Virus record (IMG/VR): IMGVR_UViG_3300017917_002918
Location: 62,001 to 126,000 of that record
Length of the DNA stretch: 64,000 nucleotides
Reading direction: 5' to 3' (one strand)
Origin: a virus
A program made the position numbers and the translations under genes. Below are positions 26,004-56,493 of the stretch, one piece after another (position 1 is the first letter of the stretch; each line of letters starts with the position of its first letter). The notes under the pieces were generated by a model. That model did not search any database. It had not been told where the DNA came from and saw nothing but the letters and a program-made list of their open reading frames with translations.

Positions 26004-26948
26004 CTATAGCATCTCTTGTAGTCTCGCCTTAGTCTTCGTCCAGTAACCAGCACTATAGCCAAATCTCTCATTAATTACAATCCAATCTTCCTTGTCTAGC
26101 TCGCCTTTCTCTTCCTTGATTTGTTTAGCCATGTCTAGCATACCTGAGTACCACATTCCTGTAACAGTCCAGTATTGATTTCCCCAATATTGCTTAATTC
26201 TATTCAACCTTGCAGTTATGTTTGTTGCTTTAATTGCTCCTTCACATTGTCTAGCGGCAACTCTCAACACGTAATCTGTTTTTGTTATGACATAATGATT
26301 AGATTTAAGATCTGGTGAATCCTCCCCATTATTCTTATAGTAGAATTCCTCATCTAATGCTCTCCTAATGTAATCTATAGCCAAATCGGACACTATAATC
26401 TTTCTAGTTTCACCATTGTTTTTAGTTAACGTCAATTCATTTGAAATAAATCCTACATCTGACTCTTTTAAGTTGATAATCTCTTCTGCATCTTCACCTT
26501 TAACACCTTCAAATGGCAATATCAAACATAATGCATCCTGTGCATTAACACATGAACCTGCAATTTCTTCTAATTCTGCACGGGTAACGTATTTCTTTCC
26601 CTGTATATTTACATCTACATACTTTAATAAATCTTCATAACCACCTATGCCTTGCAAATAATTAACTTTTGTTTCAATATATCCTTCTTTGTTCGCAAAG
26701 TCTAGGTATATTTTTAACACAGATAATACACTTGCTACAGCCTGAACACTACCATTACAATAACTTTTCAACAAAGAATCTAATTCATTATTGTCCATCT
26801 CATATATGTCTTTATTAAGCATTGATTCTGTTTCATAAGATTTTTGAAGAATGTACTTATAATAAATTTGTGTACTTGCAGAGTAATTTTCCAAAAATCT
26901 ATTTTTAAAATCTTGATTATACAAGACTTGACTTAAATATTTGTTCAT
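26004..26948 (-). CDS. mrpR: MrpR-like (SPbeta repressor family) integrase-fold DNA-binding protein, 314 aa
   Basis: The sequence has features I associate with the SPbeta master repressor MrpR (formerly YopR): MNKYLSQVLYNQDFKNRFLENY, NAQDALCLILPFEGVKGEDAEEIINLKESDV, DYVLRVAARQ and WYSGMLDMAKQI. MrpR has a tyrosine-recombinase fold but lacks recombinase activity and represses SPbeta lytic genes by binding repeated operators. Here too the usual R-H-x-x-R...Y catalytic set is not evident. If the role is conserved, the recurrent intergenic AT motif or the GTGTCAAAT cluster are candidate operators. This assignment is from remembered family features. Confidence 0.65.
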   Translation of the reverse strand: MNKYLSQVLYNQDFKNRFLENYSASTQIYYKYILQKSYETESMLNKDIYEMDNNELDSLLKSYCNGSVQAVASVLSVLKIYLDFANKEGYIETKVNYLQGIGGYEDLLKYVDVNIQGKKYVTRAELEEIAGSCVNAQDALCLILPFEGVKGEDAEEIINLKESDVGFISNELTLTKNNGETRKIIVSDLAIDYIRRALDEEFYYKNNGEDSPDLKSNHYVITKTDYVLRVAARQCEGAIKATNITARLNRIKQYWGNQYWTVTGMWYSGMLDMAKQIKEEKGELDKEDWIVINERFGYSAGYWTKTKARLQEML

Positions 26949-28726: not shown

Positions 28727-29314
28727 CTATACATATACTAATTCTTTTGTTTTAAAATACTCTTTAGTTTCCTTTATAACTTCTTTATAATCTCTGCCTA
28801 ATTTTGCACAATACTCCATTAATTCTTTCATTAGTAATTGTTTAGCTTTTATTTGTTGATTTAATTGTTTAGCCAATATATCCAACTGCCTAATACTAAG
28901 CATTATTTCCCTGACATATTCAAAATTCAAACTCATAATTTGATTATTGATACCGACTTGAATCATTACTGCATTTTCAAGTTGTGCCATGGTAGTTTCT
29001 GTAACTTCGCCAATTTTAAATTTTAATCTAGATTTGTCTATAGTTTGTGATTGTTCACACAACGCTATTGATTCTGATTTCAAACCCGAATCTAAACCCA
29101 CTAACACATGAGTTGGAACTTTTTTCATTTTATTTATGTTTGATGATAATGGTATCACCGTAATTGTTGGACTATAAGTATTACATTTATTGTTGCTTAA
29201 ACAAATTACTGGTCTTAAACCTTGTTGAATACTGGTTTTTTCTGAACTACTCATATAATTCAAATCTGCAAACCATATTTCACCCCTTTTTATTGTTGTA
29301 ATTGTGCTGCTCAT
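28727..29314 (-). CDS. MazF/PemK-type endoribonuclease toxin with long C-terminal extension, 195 aa
   Basis: Residues 1-115 have the MazF/PemK fold: IKRGEIWFADLNY, QQGLRPVICLSNNKCN, TITVIPLSSNINK and ALCEQSQTIDKSRL. These enzymes cut RNA at short sequences. Residues 120-195 form a charged helical extension (QLDILAKQLNQQIKAKQLLMKELMEY) that normal MazF (about 110 aa) lacks. No recognisable MazE antitoxin precedes it, as the upstream gene lies behind this gene's own promoter. The extension may substitute for the antitoxin, or the gene may be an antisense weapon against host RNA. Confidence 0.8.
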   Translation of the reverse strand: MSSTITTIKRGEIWFADLNYMSSSEKTSIQQGLRPVICLSNNKCNTYSPTITVIPLSSNINKMKKVPTHVLVGLDSGLKSESIALCEQSQTIDKSRLKFKIGEVTETTMAQLENAVMIQVGINNQIMSLNFEYVREIMLSIRQLDILAKQLNQQIKAKQLLMKELMEYCAKLGRDYKEVIKETKEYFKTKELVYV

Positions 29315-33096: not shown

Positions 33097-33285
33097 TTAC
33101 TTCACATTACTTGAAGCATTAAACTCACGATTCTCATTAACTATTTTCTCCATAATATGTAACAATGCTTGATAATTGCATTTACCACATGACTTATTGC
33201 TACTTCCGAACTCGCATGGTAAACATTGCTCATTAACCACTTGATTAAACAATAAATCCATTTTTTCTTTAATGTTCTTTTCCAT
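33097..33285 (-). CDS. Small cysteine-containing protein, 62 aa
   Basis: MEKNIKEKMDLLFNQVVNEQCLPCEFGSSNKSCGKCNYQALLHIMEK... contains CLPC and CGKC, a possible zinc site within a helical protein. GAGGTG lies upstream. It is the first gene after the tRNA-like RNA at 33,320-33,431. Function unknown. Confidence 0.6.
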   Translation of the reverse strand: MEKNIKEKMDLLFNQVVNEQCLPCEFGSSNKSCGKCNYQALLHIMEKIVNENREFNASSNVK

Positions 33286-33319
33286 AATTCACCTCGTTAT
33301 CATGATTTAATTATATATT

Positions 33320-33431
33320 GAGAGTAGAAGGGATTCGAACCCTCACTATATGCACCTTACCCTACTAACCACCTGTGCATATCGCCCGTGCAGACCCACG
33401 CAACTGCTTTTACCATTTAGCAACTACTCTC
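33320..33431 (-). tRNA. tRNA-like RNA with long variable arm and non-standard anticodon arm
   Basis: On the minus strand GAGAGTAG (5') pairs perfectly with CTACTCTC (3'), an 8-bp acceptor-like stem. A D-like arm with TGGTA in its loop follows, and the T-arm is canonical (GAGGG TTCGAAT CCCTT). A variable-arm-like hairpin (ATATGCAC/GTGCATAT, 8 bp, 19-base loop) makes the whole 112 nt long. The 8+5 bp acceptor/T stack recalls tRNA-Sec. The anticodon arm is odd: CGTG/CACG with a 6-base loop GGTCTG, so no anticodon can be assigned. No CCA is encoded. It has its own promoter. Confidence 0.6.
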
Positions 33432-33449
33432 ATATATAATCATAATTTA

Positions 33450-33477
33450 ATTATAAACTATTTAATTAAAATGTCAA
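33450..33477 (-). promoter_or_regulatory. Dedicated promoter of the tRNA-like RNA
   Basis: Minus strand TTGACA (33,472-33,477), 16 bases, TATAAT (33,450-33,455), ending 18 bases before the first base of the tRNA-like stem. Confidence 0.8.
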
Positions 33478-34353: not shown

Positions 34354-35277
34354 TTAATGTGCTAATTTATCGGCTTCATGTAAAATCATTAATTGATTAT
34401 AGAAATTTTGACCCATCAAATTAATAATTCTTTCTTTGCTCTTGTAAGAATCACAATTATACGGTCGCATATGCCATCTAATTAGTTGACAAATATATAA
34501 CAAGTCCTTTGTACTACAACGATTTTGCAAATAAAACAAAGCCATATAAGCAGATATTTGTTCGTGATTATAATAGTGAGCCATACTTGTTGTTTCACCT
34601 TTTTGATTCTTGAATTGCTTCACAAAAGCCTTTCCTGCATCATGTAGCAATCCTGCTATAGCTAAGTCACAATCATCTGTCATTAGTTGAACATGTCCTG
34701 AACATCGCAAGCAATGCTCACCAATGGTATATTGATGATTGATATTATCTTGATTGACACTGTTCAAGCCATTAACACCATTAAACAGCTCATGTAACGC
34801 ATTAATATTATATTGTTTCGTATTATTATAAATTATCTCTATTTCATCATAGCCCTCGAAGTAGGCAGGCACATCGAAGTTTAAATACATACGTTTAATA
34901 ACTTCTTCTGGTACAACTCGTTCTCTTTCCTTGTTTTGCTCCAAACATTGTTCATAGGGAGTTGCAAGTAAAAGGCAAATTTTATCACAAGGTACTTTCT
35001 TTAGCTCATACAACAATGCCATGCGTTTTTTATAGCTTACATTTGTTGCGTCCATGATTACGTTCTTTCCACTTATTAAATCGTTTTTGACTCTTTTATG
35101 TAACTCTGCAAATATATCTTTATTGGCTGATTGGTCATTTATATTATTTAATAATTCAACTCTTAAATCATCTGAGCTATGAATAGTTGCACTATAGTCA
35201 AGATCTAATTCTTTTGCCCATACTGACTTACCGCTTGCGGGCAGTCCTACTAGAAGGAAAAATTTATTATTCATCAT
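34354..35277 (-). CDS. Polynucleotide kinase-HD phosphatase fusion (RNA end-healing), 307 aa
   Basis: The start at 35,277 (MMNNKFFLLVGLPASGKSVW) overlaps the end of the RNA ligase gene. The N-terminal half is a Pnkp-like kinase: Walker A GLPASGKS, then HSSDDLRVE, IMDATNVSYKKR and a lid with NKERERVVPEEVI. The C-terminal half is an HD phosphohydrolase: HCLRCSGH, AGLLHDAGKAF, HYYNHEQIS and LIRWHM. HD-Pnk enzymes in other bacteria carry HD first; here the order is kinase then HD. Such enzymes phosphorylate 5'-OH and remove 2',3'-phosphates so that broken RNA can be ligated. Confidence 0.8.
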   Translation of the reverse strand: MMNNKFFLLVGLPASGKSVWAKELDLDYSATIHSSDDLRVELLNNINDQSANKDIFAELHKRVKNDLISGKNVIMDATNVSYKKRMALLYELKKVPCDKICLLLATPYEQCLEQNKERERVVPEEVIKRMYLNFDVPAYFEGYDEIEIIYNNTKQYNINALHELFNGVNGLNSVNQDNINHQYTIGEHCLRCSGHVQLMTDDCDLAIAGLLHDAGKAFVKQFKNQKGETTSMAHYYNHEQISAYMALFYLQNRCSTKDLLYICQLIRWHMRPYNCDSYKSKERIINLMGQNFYNQLMILHEADKLAH

Positions 35278-36595
35278 CTTCACCCACGCTCTCTGCTTCT
35301 TCCATATCAAGAACATCAGATGTTTTAATAATTCCTTCCAAAATTTTAAACGACACGTTTTTGTGTTTATATGCCTCAAATTTATTAGAATTTTCTTTAC
35401 GAATACAAACTCCCTCCCTAACGTGTACTTTTCCTATAGGATCTGGACCATCAGAAAACTTATCAACCCTCTCTTCTAAGTCTTCAATAGATGTAAAGAA
35501 AAACTTATCTAATACTGGTACGCATTTAACTGCCATTTGCTCACATCTTGCTTTAATTTGCTCTGTAGAGTACTCAAATACCACACCATCTTCATTTGTC
35601 ATCGTCATCCTATAAACATAAATATCATTTTGTCCTTGCTCACAACCATATGTAAATCTTGTAGTATTCCCGTATTGTTTTATAAATTCTTTATCCTTAG
35701 TTTTAGAGTTTTGACACTCTGGCATTATAAGTTGATTAACATTTACCCATGCAACTATCTCATAATAAATCGTCTCGCCTTTATGTAACTTACCAACGAA
35801 GTAATCGTGCCATTTCTTCCTGAATTCAGCACTACCATAGAACCCACCATCAAAGTTTTTCAATACTACTCTTCTTGATCCTGATACATACTTCCAAGTT
35901 TTTGTTGGCTTTGATTCAAGTTTTAAAAATTTCAATGTCCTATATAACCAATATGGTAATATACGCTTCTTTTCTTCAATCGAACGGGATGTGCGGGCAC
36001 TCGTGCCATGGCATTTGAGGGTTATGTATAATAAATCTCCTTGCTTAAATTGATGCTTATTATATGCAAATTGTTGAGTATCAACATGTTCTGCAAACAG
36101 TGGATAAGATGTAGGCTCTATACTTTTCGTTCTACCAGAATTACCACTATTATTTTCACCACTTCTATTTCTTCTTGGAATGTATTTTTCACAAATAACA
36201 ATTCCATTTAATACCGATATTGCATCCCCTTCTTTTAATTTACTTACATCTGTAAATGTTGATAAACTGTCAATTGACATAAACAAACCATCACTTATTT
36301 CCCCACGTAGTTTTAATGTTGATATATGACGTTTGTCTTCATCGAGATAGCCATACAAATGATTGCCATTTTCATCTTTAGTTCTGATTAACTTATTTTC
36401 TTTTGCAAACTCTAATCCAACTTTTGAATCCGTTGGAAAATAAATACCTAATTCACCTTCATAAACATCTAATCCAACAATAACTGAATTACTAAAGCAA
36501 CTACCAACCATTAATCTATCAGCGTTGATATGCCTTCTTAAATCTTTAATTCTTGTTACATATGCAACTACACTCACTTCAACCATACCTTTCAT
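35267..36595 (-). CDS. RNA ligase, DRB0094 (Rnl5-like) family, about 442 aa
   Basis: The ligase joins RNA 3'-OH and 5'-phosphate ends through an enzyme-adenylate. Residues 1-165 form the N-terminal OB-fold region of this family (VSVVAYVTRIKDLRRHINADRL, LRGEISDGLFM). The nucleotidyltransferase domain begins with the KxHG-type motif I KCHGTSAR (Lys194 as the AMP acceptor). Motif III-like YYEIVAWVN and motifs IV/V (REGVCIRKE, KFEAYKHKNVSFK) follow. The ATG at 36,595 lacks a good binding site; GTG at 36,577 behind AAAGG is an alternative. It overlaps the kinase-HD gene, so healing and sealing are coupled. Confidence 0.85.
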   Translation of the reverse strand: MKGMVEVSVVAYVTRIKDLRRHINADRLMVGSCFSNSVIVGLDVYEGELGIYFPTDSKVGLEFAKENKLIRTKDENGNHLYGYLDEDKRHISTLKLRGEISDGLFMSIDSLSTFTDVSKLKEGDAISVLNGIVICEKYIPRRNRSGENNSGNSGRTKSIEPTSYPLFAEHVDTQQFAYNKHQFKQGDLLYITLKCHGTSARTSRSIEEKKRILPYWLYRTLKFLKLESKPTKTWKYVSGSRRVVLKNFDGGFYGSAEFRKKWHDYFVGKLHKGETIYYEIVAWVNVNQLIMPECQNSKTKDKEFIKQYGNTTRFTYGCEQGQNDIYVYRMTMTNEDGVVFEYSTEQIKARCEQMAVKCVPVLDKFFFTSIEDLEERVDKFSDGPDPIGKVHVREGVCIRKENSNKFEAYKHKNVSFKILEGIIKTSDVLDMEEAESVGEDDE

Positions 36596-37564: not shown

Positions 37565-38908
37565 TTATATCACAGGTTTTAACTCATCTTCAGCAATTTT
37601 AATTAGCCTTTCCCTATCGTTTAATTCTGGTGACTCTATGACCATATCAACTAAAACATTTATTAATCTTCCTACAATTTTACCCTCCTTGAATCCCAAT
37701 TTAATCAAATCACTACCATTTATGGCTAAATCTTTTTTACTAAAACATTGATTGTCTGCTATTATTTCATTTAACAAAACTTCAATCTGCACCAAATTAT
37801 CCTTCTTTCTGTCATAGGCTAATTGACTCTGTGCTATCATATCAGCATATTTAAATTTCAGTAAGTCTCTAAAGTTTTCTTCACCAATTTTATTCAACCA
37901 CTTCTTAATACTTCTCTTATTAACTGAAATTTCAGCATCGTGATGAAGAACCAAGTTCCTAACTTTCATTATAATGTGATTGTCGTATCTTAATCTCCTT
38001 AATATTTCAACTGCCATATCAGAGCCAACAATAGGATGATTGTAAAAATGATCAATTCCGTATTCATCGGTAGTCTTGCACAGTGGTTTTGCTATATCAT
38101 GCAATAATGCTGTGAGTCTCAAATGTAACGTAGGCTCAATAGCAATTACAGATTTGATAATGTGATCAAATACATCGTGGTTGTGATATGGATTGTTTTG
38201 TTGAACATTGATAGTTGTATTTAATTCTGGGAGAATATACTTTAATATATTTGACATTTCCAAAAGTCCAAACCCATAGCTTACATTGTTACTTAATAAT
38301 ATTTGATTTAACTCACTCATGATACGTTCTTTAGAGACAACCATAATTTTATCTGCATTTTTATAAATAGCGTCCAACGTGTTTTCGTCAATTATAAACC
38401 CAAACCTCGAAGCAAATCTAACTGCTCGCATCATCCTCAATGCATCTTCGCTAAATCTTTCGTTTGCATTTCCAACACATCTAATCACGTTGTTAATTAA
38501 ATCCATACGACCACCAAATGGATCAAACAAGCCTTCTGTAAAGTTAAATGCCATAGCTCCAATTGTGAAATCCCTTCTGCTCAAATCCTCAACTAAATCA
38601 TCTGTAAAAGTGACTTCATCTGGATGCCTATTGTCGCTATATTTCCCTTCTTTCCTGAATGTTGTAATTTCATAGCCGATACCATCTGCCATTACTGTTA
38701 CAGTACCATGATCAATTCCTGTTGGAATAACATTATGATCTCTAAATACATTCATAACCTGTTCTGGTAACGCATTTGTAGTTATGTCCCAATCCTTTGG
38801 TGTTATGCCCAATATCATATCTCTTACACATCCACCGACTACAAAAGCTCTAAATCCTTTGTGTTGTAACGTATCTATTATATACTGTACTTGATTTGGC
38901 ATATACAT
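37565..38908 (-). CDS. cca: CCA tRNA nucleotidyltransferase with HD domain
   Basis: This class II enzyme adds or repairs the CCA end of tRNA. AFVVGGCVRDMILGITPKDWDITT holds the GGxxRD loop and the DxD metal site. RRDFTIGAMAFN and RRDF-type nucleotide-recognition elements follow, and LDPFGG-like FDPFGGRMDL lies beyond. A C-terminal HD domain (LTALLHDIAKPLC...HDAEIS) gives phosphohydrolase potential. Length (about 447 aa) matches bacterial Cca. The start is ATG 38,908 or GTG 38,914. It is 2-8 bases downstream of the nucleotidyltransferase gene. It could finish the element's CCA-less tRNA-like RNA or repair cleaved tRNAs. Confidence 0.92.
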   Translation of the reverse strand: MYMPNQVQYIIDTLQHKGFRAFVVGGCVRDMILGITPKDWDITTNALPEQVMNVFRDHNVIPTGIDHGTVTVMADGIGYEITTFRKEGKYSDNRHPDEVTFTDDLVEDLSRRDFTIGAMAFNFTEGLFDPFGGRMDLINNVIRCVGNANERFSEDALRMMRAVRFASRFGFIIDENTLDAIYKNADKIMVVSKERIMSELNQILLSNNVSYGFGLLEMSNILKYILPELNTTINVQQNNPYHNHDVFDHIIKSVIAIEPTLHLRLTALLHDIAKPLCKTTDEYGIDHFYNHPIVGSDMAVEILRRLRYDNHIIMKVRNLVLHHDAEISVNKRSIKKWLNKIGEENFRDLLKFKYADMIAQSQLAYDRKKDNLVQIEVLLNEIIADNQCFSKKDLAINGSDLIKLGFKEGKIVGRLINVLVDMVIESPELNDRERLIKIAEDELKPVI

Positions 38909-38915
38909 ACTCACT

Positions 38916-39840: not shown

Positions 39841-41316
39841 TTATTTGAAATAGTAGCCTTCAATTTCTTGAATTAAACTATTTGAACCCTTTTCCACTAA
39901 ATCTATATATTCTAAAGTCTTTTCTGACCATCCAGAAATTATATTAACATTTTTACCCATGAATTGTTGTGTACCATAACCTTGTAAATCAATAGCATGA
40001 ACCCAAACGTCAGGATTTACTTCTTGCCTATACCGATCAACCAATGCTTGACATTGTACAGATCTACTATTACGCCAAAACGAATTTGTCTGAACCCAAC
40101 CACTATTGATTTCATTGTCTGAGAAAATAATAATTCTATCTACAAACATCTTGTTATCTAATGCCCATTTAATTGGTAGTGTTATGTCAGTTCCTCCACC
40201 GTTAACATTAATACTTTTGGCATTTGAAATTATACCGTTTGATGACGCTAGGTTGCATTGATAAAGCTTTGTGTCAAATGCAGTAGTGAACGTATCTTCA
40301 CATATATAATTTGCCATAGACATCATTAATGTTGCAATATCTGAACAAAGTACATCACTTTTTGCACTAATTCCACTATTCATTGAACCCGATACATCGG
40401 CACTCAACAATGTTTTGCCTTGAAGTTTATTTATATTTCTTGTGCTGATTTTAATTGCTTTTTCCAATGTATCGATTACTTTAGAACTTACCAACCCTTC
40501 ACTTGTCAATGCTTTATATGCTGAATAATATCTAAATGGCAACAACTTATTCTTTAACACCTTTTCTTCATCACCAAGAAACTCATATACCTTATCAATA
40601 TTACTTGCTCCTGATTTGATTATATTTCTTAAGTTCCTAATCATTGCCATATAACCGAGTTTATTATCGTTTATTAATTGTTCCCAAACTTCCTTAGTGT
40701 TGCCTTTTGCTGATAACTCTGTTTCCCAAGTCACAGGTGTTTTTAATCTATCTTCCAATAACCTTTTGAACATGTCACTTTGTTCATTTGTTTTAGGCTT
40801 CGGATGTACTAAACACAATATATCTCTAAGTTTAACCGCTTTATTCTTTCCATTATATTTTTGTAAACTATATTCATTAAACCTAAGAAATGAATCTGCC
40901 AACCCCTTTTTCATTGAGTTTGGAATAGGTTTGTTATACTTATTTATATAATATGATAGAATCTCGCTCATATCATCTACACGCTCAACCACTTTACCAA
41001 TAGTTTTTCTTGCAAATGGTTTACCTTGAATACTTTTAGCTAATTCAGCAGTAAGTACATGTGATATTGAACGTAAGTGAAACTCGTTTCTTGCGAATAA
41101 TGCTAAATTAGCAATAAACTTTGGATCATATTCGAGAATACTTTGAATCGTATTTATAATTTCATTATCATTATTGCCATAAAATTTGTTTTCACCAAAA
41201 AATGTAGTGAGAACCTGTGTAACTAACTTTTCCTTTTCATCCATCTTGAATGCTACAACACCAGATTTATTGACAGTTTTATTGACATTCTGTGTTGACG
41301 TATTAAATTTTGACAT
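39841..41316 (-). CDS. rsr: Ro60 orthologue Rsr: TROVE plus vWA domains, 491 aa
   Basis: Ro60 is a ring-shaped RNA-binding protein that holds Y RNAs and misfolded RNAs. Residues 10-290 match the TROVE HEAT-repeat ring (NEIINTIQSILEYDPKFIANLALFARNEFHLRSISHVLTAELA is characteristic). Residues 300-491 are a vWA domain with the MIDAS residues DVSGSMNS, GGGTDITLP and IIFSDNEI. The ATG at 41,316 behind AGAGGAATTAATT is correct; a longer frame up to 41,496 reads through the leader RNA and is not credible. The gene follows a tandem Y RNA array on the same strand and ends in its own terminator. In bacteria Rsr works with PNPase or RtcB-type repair systems. Confidence 0.93.
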   Translation of the reverse strand: MSKFNTSTQNVNKTVNKSGVVAFKMDEKEKLVTQVLTTFFGENKFYGNNDNEIINTIQSILEYDPKFIANLALFARNEFHLRSISHVLTAELAKSIQGKPFARKTIGKVVERVDDMSEILSYYINKYNKPIPNSMKKGLADSFLRFNEYSLQKYNGKNKAVKLRDILCLVHPKPKTNEQSDMFKRLLEDRLKTPVTWETELSAKGNTKEVWEQLINDNKLGYMAMIRNLRNIIKSGASNIDKVYEFLGDEEKVLKNKLLPFRYYSAYKALTSEGLVSSKVIDTLEKAIKISTRNINKLQGKTLLSADVSGSMNSGISAKSDVLCSDIATLMMSMANYICEDTFTTAFDTKLYQCNLASSNGIISNAKSINVNGGGTDITLPIKWALDNKMFVDRIIIFSDNEINSGWVQTNSFWRNSRSVQCQALVDRYRQEVNPDVWVHAIDLQGYGTQQFMGKNVNIISGWSEKTLEYIDLVEKGSNSLIQEIEGYYFK

Positions 41317-41413: not shown

Positions 41414-41573
41414 TTAAAACAATATAATAATATGGGGAAATTCGAAGAAATTCTGTAGTGTGACTCATGGAGATCCACACAATAATACTTAGCCAATAGG
41501 TTAAAGTATCCACATAATAATCTTTTTATCTGAAGAAATTTTCTTCTTCACCACCATAGTATTAACAAAATTG

Positions 41574-41712
41574 TCAAGGGAAGAAAATCTGATTGAGATA
41601 TTATCGTGCGCTACCACTGCGCCACACACTGTATTAACATACAGCATGACAGGATTCGAACCTGTGACCCCGTCATCCAAATTGAAGTAGCCCAATCATC
41701 ACTTTCCCTTGA
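41574..41712 (-). ncRNA. Y RNA-like RNA C with permuted tRNA-like module
   Basis: The basal stem is TCAAGGGAA(A)G/CTTCCCTTGA (41,702-41,712 with 41,574-41,583) and the upper stem GATTGGG/CTCAATC. The 5' strand continues CTACTTCA...GATGACGGGGTC. The tRNA-like module is T-arm ACAGG TTCGAAT CCTGT (41,649-41,665), a 9-bp acceptor-like hairpin closed by a loop, then D-arm GCGC AGTGGTA GCGC (41,608-41,623). ACGATAATA and the GATTTTCTT element precede the 3' basal strand. The order is T before D, so this is not an ordinary tRNA. Confidence 0.8.
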
Positions 41713-41719
41713 TTATATA

Positions 41720-41867
41720 TAACAATTGTTAAAAGAAAATCACAAAGTCCATTTGTTCCGATTGCTCTCCCAACTGAGCTATATAGATTTAACTATAGAT
41801 GGACTCGAACCATCGACACATTGGTTTCTTGAAGGATTACTTTGCTGTACTGCTTAACAATTGTTAA
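41720..41867 (-). ncRNA. Y RNA-like RNA B with permuted tRNA-like module
   Basis: Basal stem strands TAACAATTGTTA at 41,854-41,867 and 41,720-41,732 are fully complementary, and the upper stem is CAAAGT/ACTTTG. The module has T-arm GATGG TTCGAGT CCATC (41,798-41,814), a CTATA/TATAG acceptor-like hairpin and D-arm GCTC AGTTGGGA GAGC (41,764-41,779). CCTTCA on the 5' side, TCGGAAC after the D-arm and GATTTTCTTT before the 3' strand match the other copies. Only 7 bases separate it from RNA C. Confidence 0.8.
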
Positions 41868-41877
41868 ATATCAATGT

Positions 41878-42028
41878 GTTAAATCAAGAAAAGAAAATCT
41901 AGCCAAGAGGTTTCGTACTCTGCCAATTGAGCTATATACCATATTAATATGATATAGTGGGACTTGAACCCACAACCCCGTCATTAAAAGTGAAGTATCT
42001 TGTCTATTGCACTGCAACTTGATTTAAC
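41878..42028 (-). ncRNA. Y RNA-like RNA A with permuted tRNA-like module
   Basis: Basal stem GTTAAATCAAG (42,018-42,028) pairs perfectly with CTTGATTTAAC (41,878-41,888), 11 bp; upper stem CAAGA/TCTTG. 5' side ATACTTCAC..., then T-arm GTGGG TTCAAGT CCCAC (41,957-41,973), an acceptor-like hairpin CTATAT...ATATAG, D-arm GCTC AATTGGCA GAGT (41,917-41,932), ACGAAACC and GATTTTCTTTT. An additional 6-bp helix GGGGTT/AACCTC takes the place of the anticodon stem. It is the first RNA after the promoter. Confidence 0.8.
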
Positions 42029-42053: not shown

Positions 42054-42082
42054 ATCATACCACACATTAAATCAAATGTCAA
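42054..42082 (-). promoter_or_regulatory. Promoter of the Y RNA array and rsr
   Basis: Minus strand TTGACA (42,077-42,082), exactly 17 bases, TATGAT (42,054-42,059). A small AAGGTT/AACCTT hairpin follows the expected start site, before RNA A. Confidence 0.85.
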
Positions 42083-54574: not shown

Positions 54575-54720
54575 AACATTATAACTTTAATGTTTCTTTC
54601 CTTGTTCATCATGTTCTTTTTCACATTATCGCTAATGCTACTAGAGTTTGTTTAACACTCCAAAGGCTTAATCTCCCCACTAACGTATGGGTACATTATA
54701 TTTACGCTATTTTATATTCA
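54569..54720 (-). ncRNA. Probable omega RNA (TnpB guide RNA) at the right end of the IS607 element
   Basis: In TnpB elements the guide RNA overlaps the 3' end of tnpB and runs to the right end. Here about 130 bases without any gene follow the tnpB stop and contain stem-forming GC patches (for example TACCCATACGTTAGTGGGGA near 54,670-54,690) before the terminal repeat. The guide would be the bases just outside the right end. Assigned by position and family, not by folding. Confidence 0.5.
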
Positions 54721-55874
54721 TTATAATCTCTTAAATTTAATGAAGCATTATGGTCTCTGTCATGAATTACTCCACAAGAAGGACATATCCATTCTCTATC
54801 ATTTAAATTTAATGCCTTATTTATATATCCACAATCATGACAAGTTTTAGAACTTGGATACCATCGACTCACAACTCTAACTTCAGTGTTATTCCATTTG
54901 CTCTTGTATTGCAATTGTAGTCTAAACTCATATAATGATTGTTGTTGTATTGCTTTTGATAAGTGCTTGTTCTTCATCATACCTTTGATATTCAAGTCTT
55001 CAATTACAATAAAGCTTGGTTTTCGCTTTATTATTTCAGAAGTTACTTGATGATTATAGTTATTCCTAGTTCCATTTAATTTATGTTGTACAGTTTTGAT
55101 TTTTTTTTCAAGTTTAATTATATTTTTAGTTTTTACAAACTTTACACCATCTTTGTTTTCTTCATATTTTCTTGACACTTGACGTTGTAATCTTTTCTTT
55201 TGTTTTTCAAGTTTTCTAATCTTATCAGATTTATTTATATTTTTATAAGTTATATTATCTGAGCATATAGCAAGATCTTTAATTCCAACATCAATACCAA
55301 TTCCATCATTTTGAGGTGTTTCAAGATTATCAGGGAATTCAACACCAACACTTATGAACCAATGTAAACCATCGTGAGATACTCTAGGATTTACATATTT
55401 AACATCTTTCCCGAAAGGAATTCTATTATGTTCAGCTAATCTTACCCAGTTTAATTTCTGCTTGTTTTTCTTGGAACTTTTAGCAAATCCTTCGAATTTA
55501 ACATGTGTAGCGTTAAACTGTATTTTTATATTGTCTTGATAAAATTTGGGTGGAGATTTCTTACGACTTTTAAATTTAGGGAATTTTGCTAATCCTTTAA
55601 AGAATTTTTGATATGCAATACAGGCATCTTTAATTGCTTGTTTTGATACATTATTAGAAGTATCGTTTAGCCACTTAAATTCTTCGATTTTCTTCAATTG
55701 TGTGAACTCTTTTCTTAAATCATTGTCACTTATAAATTTACCACCATTATCATAATTCTCTTTTTCTCTTGCCAGTGCCCAATTATAAGCGAATCTCTTG
55801 ACTCCTGCGTTTTGAAACATTAGTGTATTTTGCTTGTTATTAGGTACTAGCATTACTTTCATTCCCTTTATCAT
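54702..55874 (-). CDS. tnpB: TnpB RNA-guided nuclease of IS607 type, 390 aa
   Basis: TnpB is an RNA-guided DNA nuclease that favours element maintenance. It has a RuvC-like site: GIDVGIKDL (first Asp), FIVIEDLNIKG (Glu) and DHNASLNL (last Asp). A four-Cys zinc ribbon (CHDCGY...CPSCG) lies between the second and third. The start at 55,874 (MIKGMKVMLVPNNKQNT) lies behind AAGGAG and overlaps the tnpA end by 35 bases. The N-terminal helical RNA-binding region (FAYNWALAREKENYDNGGKF) is complete, so the protein is full length and probably active. Confidence 0.9.
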   Translation of the reverse strand: MIKGMKVMLVPNNKQNTLMFQNAGVKRFAYNWALAREKENYDNGGKFISDNDLRKEFTQLKKIEEFKWLNDTSNNVSKQAIKDACIAYQKFFKGLAKFPKFKSRKKSPPKFYQDNIKIQFNATHVKFEGFAKSSKKNKQKLNWVRLAEHNRIPFGKDVKYVNPRVSHDGLHWFISVGVEFPDNLETPQNDGIGIDVGIKDLAICSDNITYKNINKSDKIRKLEKQKKRLQRQVSRKYEENKDGVKFVKTKNIIKLEKKIKTVQHKLNGTRNNYNHQVTSEIIKRKPSFIVIEDLNIKGMMKNKHLSKAIQQQSLYEFRLQLQYKSKWNNTEVRVVSRWYPSSKTCHDCGYINKALNLNDREWICPSCGVIHDRDHNASLNLRDYNEYKIA

Positions 55875-56493
55875 CGTTTTCATCTCCTTCCTCAATTAAT
55901 ACATCAATCATTTTTCTAGCCTTATTGGCTCTTTTACCCTGCAATCTACAACTAAATACTGTAACTATTTGAATTAAATCTTCTACCAATTCCTGTTGTT
56001 CTGTTTTTTCCGTACTATCTAATATTTCAATTTCACAACCATTTAAATTCGCTATATATTCTACTAATTCGAAACCAAATCTCAAAAGTCTATCTTTATA
56101 GAGAATTACTATTTTATCTATCTCTTTGTTATTTATTTTTTTTAGCAAATCTCTAAGTCCCCTTTTTTTATAATTAATACCACTTCCAATATCAGTTATG
56201 ATATCATAAGGTTTGTTAAGAGAGTCTAGATATCTTGTCATGTTTTCAACTTGTCTAGCTAAGTCGTCTTTTTGCTTGTTTGAAGACACTCTACAATAAC
56301 CAATTATTACTTTGGGTTTTGTTGTGTCATCGCTAATATTTAAAACTTCTTTTAATTGTTCATGTGAATAATACCTATATCCACCTGCTCCAGTGTGATT
56401 GGGTTTTAATTTTCCCGAAGAATCCCAATTTCTCAATGTTTGTGGTGTTCTTCCTATAAGTTTGGAAAATTCATGTATGCTATAATACTTCAT
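55840..56493 (-). CDS. tnpA: IS607 TnpA serine recombinase (transposase), 217 aa
   Basis: The start at 56,493 (MKYYSIHEFSKLIGRTPQTLRNWDSSGKL) follows GAGGTGATAATT. An N-terminal MerR-like helix-turn-helix (residues 1-45) is followed by a small serine recombinase domain with the nucleophile in GYCRVSSNKQKDDLARQ and the arginine region YKDRLLRFGFELVEY. This HTH-first arrangement defines IS607 TnpA. It is intact. Confidence 0.9.
   Translation of the reverse strand: MKYYSIHEFSKLIGRTPQTLRNWDSSGKLKPNHTGAGGYRYYSHEQLKEVLNISDDTTKPKVIIGYCRVSSNKQKDDLARQVENMTRYLDSLNKPYDIITDIGSGINYKKRGLRDLLKKINNKEIDKIVILYKDRLLRFGFELVEYIANLNGCEIEILDSTEKTEQQELVEDLIQIVTVFSCRLQGKRANKARKMIDVLIEEGDENDDKGNESNAST

What the first reader, a model, noticed from the sequence alone, without database searches (positions are those of the whole stretch)
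33320..33431. Free-standing tRNA-like RNA with 8-bp acceptor, long variable arm and no readable anticodon
It has canonical acceptor, D and T elements in normal order and its own strong promoter. Its anticodon region (CGTG GGTCTG CACG) has a 4-bp stem and a 6-base loop, and the variable arm has a 19-base loop. It lacks an encoded CCA, yet the element carries cca. The 8+5 stack is reminiscent of tRNA-Sec. It may be a decoy for tRNA-cleaving nucleases, a primer, or a highly diverged tRNA.
Basis: partly seen in the sequence, partly recalled or inferred. Interest (0 to 1): 0.72.

Follow-up and report, generated by a model that had tools for sequence, protein, structure and literature searches.

The report
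Phage tRNA mimic without an anticodon
A virus of bacteria (probably of Bacillus relatives) carries a gene for a small RNA that folds like a transfer RNA at both ends and the elbow but has lost the part that reads the genetic code, so it probably fools or occupies tRNA-handling enzymes rather than helping to make protein.

Summary
On the minus strand, 33431-33320 scores 40.4 bits against the Rfam tRNA model (gathering score 29, E 4.4e-5). ARAGORN calls nothing. A 12/12 sigma-70 promoter lies directly upstream. The RNA has a perfect acceptor stem, D arm and T arm, an 8-bp variable-type stem with a 19-nt loop, and a 4-bp/6-nt hairpin where an anticodon arm should be. No contiguous anticodon arm exists, and removing one inserted segment never gives a canonical class I arm.

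The '8+5, Sec-like' reading is not supported: the tRNA-Sec model scores 10.4 bits, on the T arm alone. In the canonical frame the RNA is a 7-bp acceptor plus a G-1:C73 pair. Its acceptor and T stems match Bacillales tRNA-Ser(GCU) at 11 of 12 pairs; the twelfth is a compensated flip. It also has a serine-type long variable arm, so it most likely descends from a class II tRNA-Ser.

It lies 6 kb from a phage Ro60 gene with three YrlA-like Y RNAs, and near RlaP, Cca, RNA ligase and kinase genes.

No homologue was found, so purifying selection cannot be shown. Best reading: a non-decoding tRNA mimic, function inferred. A decayed tRNA is the main rival.

The parts
33450..33477 (-). sigma-70 type promoter TTGACA-16-TATAAT
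   Evidence: 12 of 12 consensus positions; one of 6 such 12/12 sites in 64 kb
33320..33431 (-). tRNA-like RNA (whole element)
   Evidence: RF00005 40.4 bits, E 4.4e-5; alignment
33424..33431 (-). acceptor 5' strand GAGAGUAG (G-1 then positions 1-7)
   Evidence: pairs perfectly with 33320-33327; pairing probability 0.96-1.0
33405..33422 (-). D arm (UGCU-AAAUGGUAAA-AGCA) with GG and A14
   Evidence: aligned to the D arm of the tRNA model
33387..33400 (-). short hairpin CGUG-GGUCUG-CACG in place of the anticodon arm
   Evidence: pairing probability 0.61-0.65; no U33 at loop position 2, no 5/7/5 arm
33348..33382 (-). variable-type arm, 8 bp with 19-nt purine-rich loop
   Evidence: probability 0.76-0.99; 8-bp stem in 0.4% of shuffles
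33328..33344 (-). T arm GAGGG-UUCGAAU-CCCUU
   Evidence: 17/17 identical to Priestia tRNA-Ser(GCU) T arm
33320..33327 (-). acceptor 3' strand CUACUCU plus C73; no CCA follows
   Evidence: sequence
33097..33285 (-). 62-aa ORF directly downstream, no terminator between
   Evidence: ORF list; no terminator found; no Pfam match; no viral relative
34354..35379 (-). polynucleotide-kinase-like P-loop protein with HD domain (context)
   Evidence: PF13671 and PF01966
35267..36595 (-). probable RNA ligase (context)
   Evidence: PF09414 E 8e-5, slightly below the Pfam cut-off
37565..38914 (-). CCA-adding enzyme (context)
   Evidence: PF01743, PF12627, PF13735
38916..39683 (-). RlaP RNA-repair nucleotidyltransferase (context)
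   Evidence: PF10127 E 1.9e-18
39841..41316 (-). Ro60/TROVE protein (context)
   Evidence: PF05731 E 4.8e-33, PF25045; start codon chosen by eye at 41316
41573..41980 (-). three YrlA-like Y RNAs upstream of Ro60 (41914-41980 core, 41739-41845, 41573-41710)
   Evidence: RF02553 E 1.6e-3, 1.6e-6, 5.2e-6, all below the gathering score

Best explanation
It is a free-standing phage gene for a non-decoding, tRNA-mimicking RNA, most likely descended from a class II tRNA-Ser of a Bacillales host. Shown by sequence: intact acceptor, D and T elements with the canonical elbow nucleotides; a serine-type long variable arm; a consensus promoter; no anticodon arm that could decode. Inferred: the host sigma factor transcribes it; RNase P and RNase Z free the ends; Cca (phage or host) adds CCA. 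The mature RNA is then bound by enzymes that read the acceptor, T elbow and variable arm but not the anticodon (CCA enzyme, SerRS, tRNA-Ser-directed toxins or nucleases). Because it cannot decode and has C73 instead of G73, it would act as a decoy or sponge, not as an adaptor. It lies in a region of RNA-repair genes whose shared theme is protecting tRNAs during infection.
For: tRNA model score over the whole length. Stems and probabilities. Promoter. No contiguous 5/7/5 anticodon arm and no single-insert splice solution with a class I variable loop. Acceptor plus T stem matches Priestia tRNA-Ser(GCU) at 11/12 pairs and Paenibacillus tRNA-Ser(GGA) at 10/12, against mostly 2-6 for other tRNAs. 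Resampled stems reach 11/12 in 0.14% of trials. The three best plasmid BLAST hits are all Bacillales tRNA-Ser. [quoted passage not shown] Repair genes and Ro60 with Y RNAs nearby.
Against: No homologue in any collection searched, so selection on the structure cannot be shown. Serine identity elements G73 and C72 are missing. The tRNA-Ser match was found by searching, so its chance value is optimistic. Expression, processing and binding are untested. The phage's one canonical tRNA (Trp) encodes CCA while this RNA does not.
Confidence: 0.42

Rival explanations
1. A decayed or insert-bearing tRNA gene: a former tRNA-Ser whose anticodon arm was broken by insertions and that no longer has a function, or an unusual tRNA restored by an RNA-processing step not modelled here.
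For: Relatives of the phage carry tRNA genes interrupted in or near the anticodon arm: a 49-nt insert in a tRNA whose anticodon without it would be UGU, and a whole tRNA nested in another tRNA (L070). The RNA is an orphan.
Against: All remaining stems are perfect, including a compensated acceptor pair relative to tRNA-Ser, and the promoter is 12/12. For this RNA no single-insert removal gives a canonical class I arm, whereas L078 and L070 do have such solutions.
Confidence: 0.27
2. A histidine-accepting tRNA-like RNA: with CCA added after C73, the G-1:C73 pair on a 13-bp acceptor-T stack is enough for bacterial HisRS, so the RNA would be histidylated or would occupy HisRS, like plant-virus tRNA-like structures.
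For: G-1 and C73 are encoded. HisRS charges 13-bp minihelices and 8-bp microhelices carrying G-1:C73 (PMC9976931). Besides tRNA-Sec, the only cellular tRNA found with this 3' end is a tRNA-His.
Against: One extra pair at the end of a stem is a weak signal (about 1 in 4 by chance for a Watson-Crick pair). The source tRNA looks like Ser, not His. The true 3' end is unknown (C73 or the following A).
Confidence: 0.1
3. A tRNA-like leader of the 62-aa ORF: the RNA is cut from the mRNA by RNase P and RNase Z, setting the 5' end or the level of the downstream message.
For: The ORF starts 35 nt after the RNA in the same direction with no terminator between.
Against: A second copy of the motif TATAATTAAATYATGAT stands between RNA and ORF (33315-33299), so the ORF may have its own start. 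The ORF has no known relatives.
Confidence: 0.12
4. A further Ro60 ligand (Y RNA) of the phage.
For: Ro60 and three YrlA-like RNAs lie 6-9 kb away on the same strand, and a related phage mixes Y RNAs and tRNAs upstream of Ro60.
Against: The module order is not permuted, and the UACUUC and GAUUUUC stem motifs of the neighbouring Y RNAs are absent (sequence). RF02553 does not hit it.
Confidence: 0.05
5. Phage attachment site copied from the 3' end of a host tRNA-Ser.
For: The 3' 24 nt match Bacillales tRNA-Ser with one mismatch, and the phage has three tyrosine recombinase genes.
Against: The nearest recombinase is about 36 kb away. The 5' half keeps a complementary acceptor strand and a D arm, which an attP core does not need.
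Confidence: 0.04

Closest known systems
Bacterial class II tRNA-Ser (Bacillales GCU and GGA isoacceptors)
   Same: T arm 17/17, acceptor plus T stem 10-11 of 12 pairs, long variable arm
   Different: no anticodon arm, C73 instead of G73, extra G-1 pair, no encoded CCA, different D arm, about 20 nt longer
Irregular allo-tRNA-like RNAs (five-stem junctions, G-1, not chargeable by E. coli enzymes; Mukai et al. 2017 as reviewed in PMC7609411)
   Same: extra acceptor-branch pair with G-1, five helices, apparently non-translating
   Different: those have 8/4 or 9/3 branches; their extra arm lies between acceptor and D arm
Bacterial Y RNAs (YrlA, RF02553)
   Same: tRNA mimicry by D, T and acceptor elements without decoding; Ro60 and Y RNAs in the same phage region
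   Different: YrlA is circularly permuted and has a Ro60-binding stem; neither is present here
tRNA-Sec (RF01852)
   Same: 13-bp acceptor-T stack, long variable arm; acceptor resembles Oscillospiraceae selC
   Different: 10.4 bits only, no UCA anticodon, no G73-CCA, canonical D arm
Plant-virus tRNA-like structures
   Same: tRNA mimic with N-1:N73 pair, not used for decoding (PMC9976931)
   Different: those sit at the 3' end of an RNA genome and serve its amplification; this is a separate gene of a DNA phage

Membership tests
tRNA (RF00005), structural sense | score above the family's gathering threshold over the whole model | tested here: met
   40.4 against 29 bits, positions 1-71
decoding tRNA | 5-bp anticodon stem with 7-nt loop and U33 | tested here: not met
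   none contiguous, none after removal of one insert with a class I variable loop; ARAGORN negative
tRNA-Ser | acceptor and T stem of the isoacceptor, large variable arm, C11-G24, G2-C71, R4-Y69 | tested here: met
   identity set from PMC9976931
tRNA-Ser | G73 discriminator | tested here: not met
   C73
tRNA-Sec | fits RF01852 (gathering score 47 bits) | tested here: not met
   10.4 bits on 16 nt
tRNA-Sec | UCA anticodon | tested here: not met
   no anticodon arm
tRNA-His | encoded G-1 paired with C73 | tested here: met
   33431:33320; mature ends unknown
tRNA-His | GUG anticodon in a 7-nt loop | tested here: not met
   no anticodon arm
YrlA Y RNA | permuted tRNA module with Ro60-binding stem | tested here: not met
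   no RF02553 hit at this site
allo-tRNA | 12-bp acceptor branch split 8/4 or 9/3 | tested here: not met
   7/5 plus G-1:C73, or 8/5
nuclease or toxin decoy RNA | binds the enzyme and spares real tRNAs | not testable with these tools
   needs binding and infection assays

The most novel reading that the evidence does not exclude
A phage-encoded, anticodon-less tRNA-Ser mimic that titrates SerRS or a tRNA-Ser-directed defence toxin through the variable arm and elbow: an RNA counter-defence working beside the Ro60/Y RNA and RNA-repair genes.
Probability: 0.17. Interest if true: 0.8.

Novelty: new variant of a known kind. Interest (0 to 1): 0.45.

Why it matters
If the RNA is made and stable, it would be a non-decoding tRNA mimic made by a phage, testable with one Northern blot and two charging assays. 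Phage tRNAs are usually explained by codon use or as replacements that resist anticodon nucleases (PMC10264068, PMC11555353). An RNA that keeps the elbow but drops the anticodon can do neither and would point to a third role. ARAGORN misses it, and searches show that other phages hold further ARAGORN-silent tRNA-like RNAs, so such genes may often be overlooked.

Tried and rejected
Homology by megablast and blastn in phages and plasmids: almost only T-arm or T-arm-plus-acceptor matches to ordinary tRNAs. Exact and degenerate patterns in viral contigs: two other tRNA-like RNAs (L068, L069), not homologues. Single-sequence covariance model R1 against 24 viral records and nine loci: only general tRNA similarity. 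tRNA-Sec rejected. Y RNA rejected. Intron or splice reading: no class I solution; four class II solutions exist, but 17% of shuffles have at least one. The canonical-position stem GUUGC/GCGAU with a 14-nt loop was not used, because 46% of shuffles have such a stem. Loop-to-mRNA pairing: best match 10 nt. Amber recoding: TAG is used normally as stop. Synteny with amber-suppressor tRNAs downstream of DUF5662 genes in other phages: too loose. The 17-bp repeats flanking the RNA looked like an insertion scar but are two copies of a motif found 17 times in the window. The idea of a histidine identity was kept only as a rival.

Full report
What is there. The minus strand 33431-33320 holds a 112-nt RNA that matches Rfam's tRNA model over its whole length at 40.4 bits (gathering score 29; E 4.4e-5 for the window; alignment). 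ARAGORN reports no tRNA in the window and one ordinary tRNA, Trp, elsewhere in the 167,401-base viral record. Folding keeps the acceptor, T and 8-bp variable-type stems at probability near 1, and the D stem and the short CGUG/CACG hairpin near 0.6. Free energy alone is only mildly unusual (z -1.9). A 12/12 TTGACA-16-TATAAT promoter ends 18 bases before the RNA; only six such sites occur in 64 kb.

Frame. The Rfam alignment places A1-G7 with C66-U72, then C73, with a G at -1 that can pair with C73. In that frame U8, A14, A15 with U48, G18G19 and UUCGAAU stand at their usual places (by inspection). The tRNA-Sec model gives 10.4 bits on the T arm alone. A scan of 257 Gb of genomes for this T-arm plus CUACUCUC end returned five contigs: four from Oscillospiraceae/Eubacteriales (three with an ARAGORN-called tRNA-Sec, one cut off by the contig end) and one archaeal tRNA-His. 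These are the two known tRNA kinds with an eighth pair, so the resemblance to tRNA-Sec is a matter of stem length and one similar acceptor, not of family.

Origin. Paenibacillus tRNA-Ser(GGA) has 10 of 12. The third, an archaeal tRNA-His with 10, had been fetched by that very acceptor sequence. Other tRNAs mostly score 2-6. Stems resampled position by position reach 11 of 12 against the 22 Bacillales tRNAs in 0.14% of trials. The two tRNA-Ser loci were themselves fetched as best BLAST hits among plasmids, so this probability is optimistic. Serine tRNAs have a long variable arm, as here. The nearest relatives of the neighbouring RlaP gene are in Bacillus phages. A tRNA-Ser source is therefore likely, perhaps two in three.

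No anticodon. The 60 nt between D and T arms contain no 5/7/5 arm with U33, and no single excision gives a canonical arm with a class I variable loop. A 5-bp stem at the canonical position with a 14-nt loop exists, but 46% of shuffles have such a stem. An 8-bp Watson-Crick stem is found in only 0.4%.

Surroundings. On the same strand lie a kinase-HD protein, a probable RNA ligase, Cca, RlaP and a Ro60/TROVE protein. Upstream of Ro60, three RNAs carry permuted tRNA modules and match YrlA (RF02553) at E 1.6e-6, 5.2e-6 and 1.6e-3, below the gathering score. A related viral contig (L017, Ro60 61% identical) has ten tRNAs intermixed with such Y RNAs upstream of Ro60. Such repair genes are described in jumbo phages as a counter to tRNA-cleaving immunity (PMC7824862), and Rsr with Y RNAs was proposed for a Listeria phage (PMC12282133). 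The RNA in question is not a Y RNA: it is not permuted and lacks their stem motifs.

Mechanism. The shape predicts processing by RNase P and RNase Z and CCA addition, since no CCA is encoded. Enzymes that read the anticodon cannot use it. [quoted passage not shown] Of the six bacterial serine elements outside the anticodon stem listed in PMC9976931, four are present while G73 and C72 are not. The RNA thus looks built to be bound rather than to decode. A decoy or sponge for a tRNA-Ser-directed enzyme is my best reading; this step is inference. Histidylation through G-1:C73, a leader role for the 62-aa ORF, and plain decay are the rivals.

Limits. No homologue was found by blastn, patterns, or a single-sequence covariance model over 24 viral records, so conservation and covariation could not be tested. 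Nothing here shows that the RNA is made.

Noticed in passing
window 41573-41980 (-): Three YrlA-like Y RNAs directly upstream of a phage Ro60 gene, with an 11/12 promoter at 42082 (-).
   Followed up: partly
L017 3500-6915 (+): Related viral contig with ten tRNA genes intermixed with several Y RNAs (some with, some without a tRNA module) upstream of Ro60; two reach RF02553 E < 0.02.
   Followed up: partly
L070 271-420 (viral record G020 26770-26920): A complete CCA-bearing tRNA nested inside the anticodon loop of another tRNA; the outer halves together would have anticodon UGU.
   Followed up: partly
L078 5172-5293 (viral record G014): tRNA with a 49-nt insert in the anticodon loop; without it the loop reads CUUGUAA (anticodon UGU), an isotype otherwise not called in that cluster. 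Much smaller than a group I intron.
   Followed up: partly
L079 15770-15891; L075 13809-13943; L084 4549-4647: Further phage tRNA-like genes with roughly 25-60 nt extra in the anticodon region, missed by ARAGORN.
   Followed up: partly
L069 12334-12394; L061 5596-5657; L068 7926-8047: Other ARAGORN-silent tRNA-like RNAs in phages; two are about 60 nt and seem to lack an anticodon arm.
   Followed up: partly
window, e.g. 33439-33455, 33299-33315, 24158, 9175, 8941: Motif TATAATTAAATYATGAT occurs 17 times in the window (0.8 expected), 16 on the minus strand and none in the rest of the genome, often just upstream of a TTGACA box or just upstream of a ribosome-binding site: a likely phage regulatory element.
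   Followed up: partly
window 54598-54666 and 54702-55895 (-): RAGATH-18 RNA next to an IS605 OrfB/TnpB-like gene.
   Followed up: no
window 28727-29314 (-): PemK/MazF-like toxin gene.
   Followed up: no
viral records G016 21523, G019 4764, G020 48794, G021 14318, G014 101316: Solitary tRNAs with a CUA (amber) anticodon near DUF5662 genes in several phages.
   Followed up: partly
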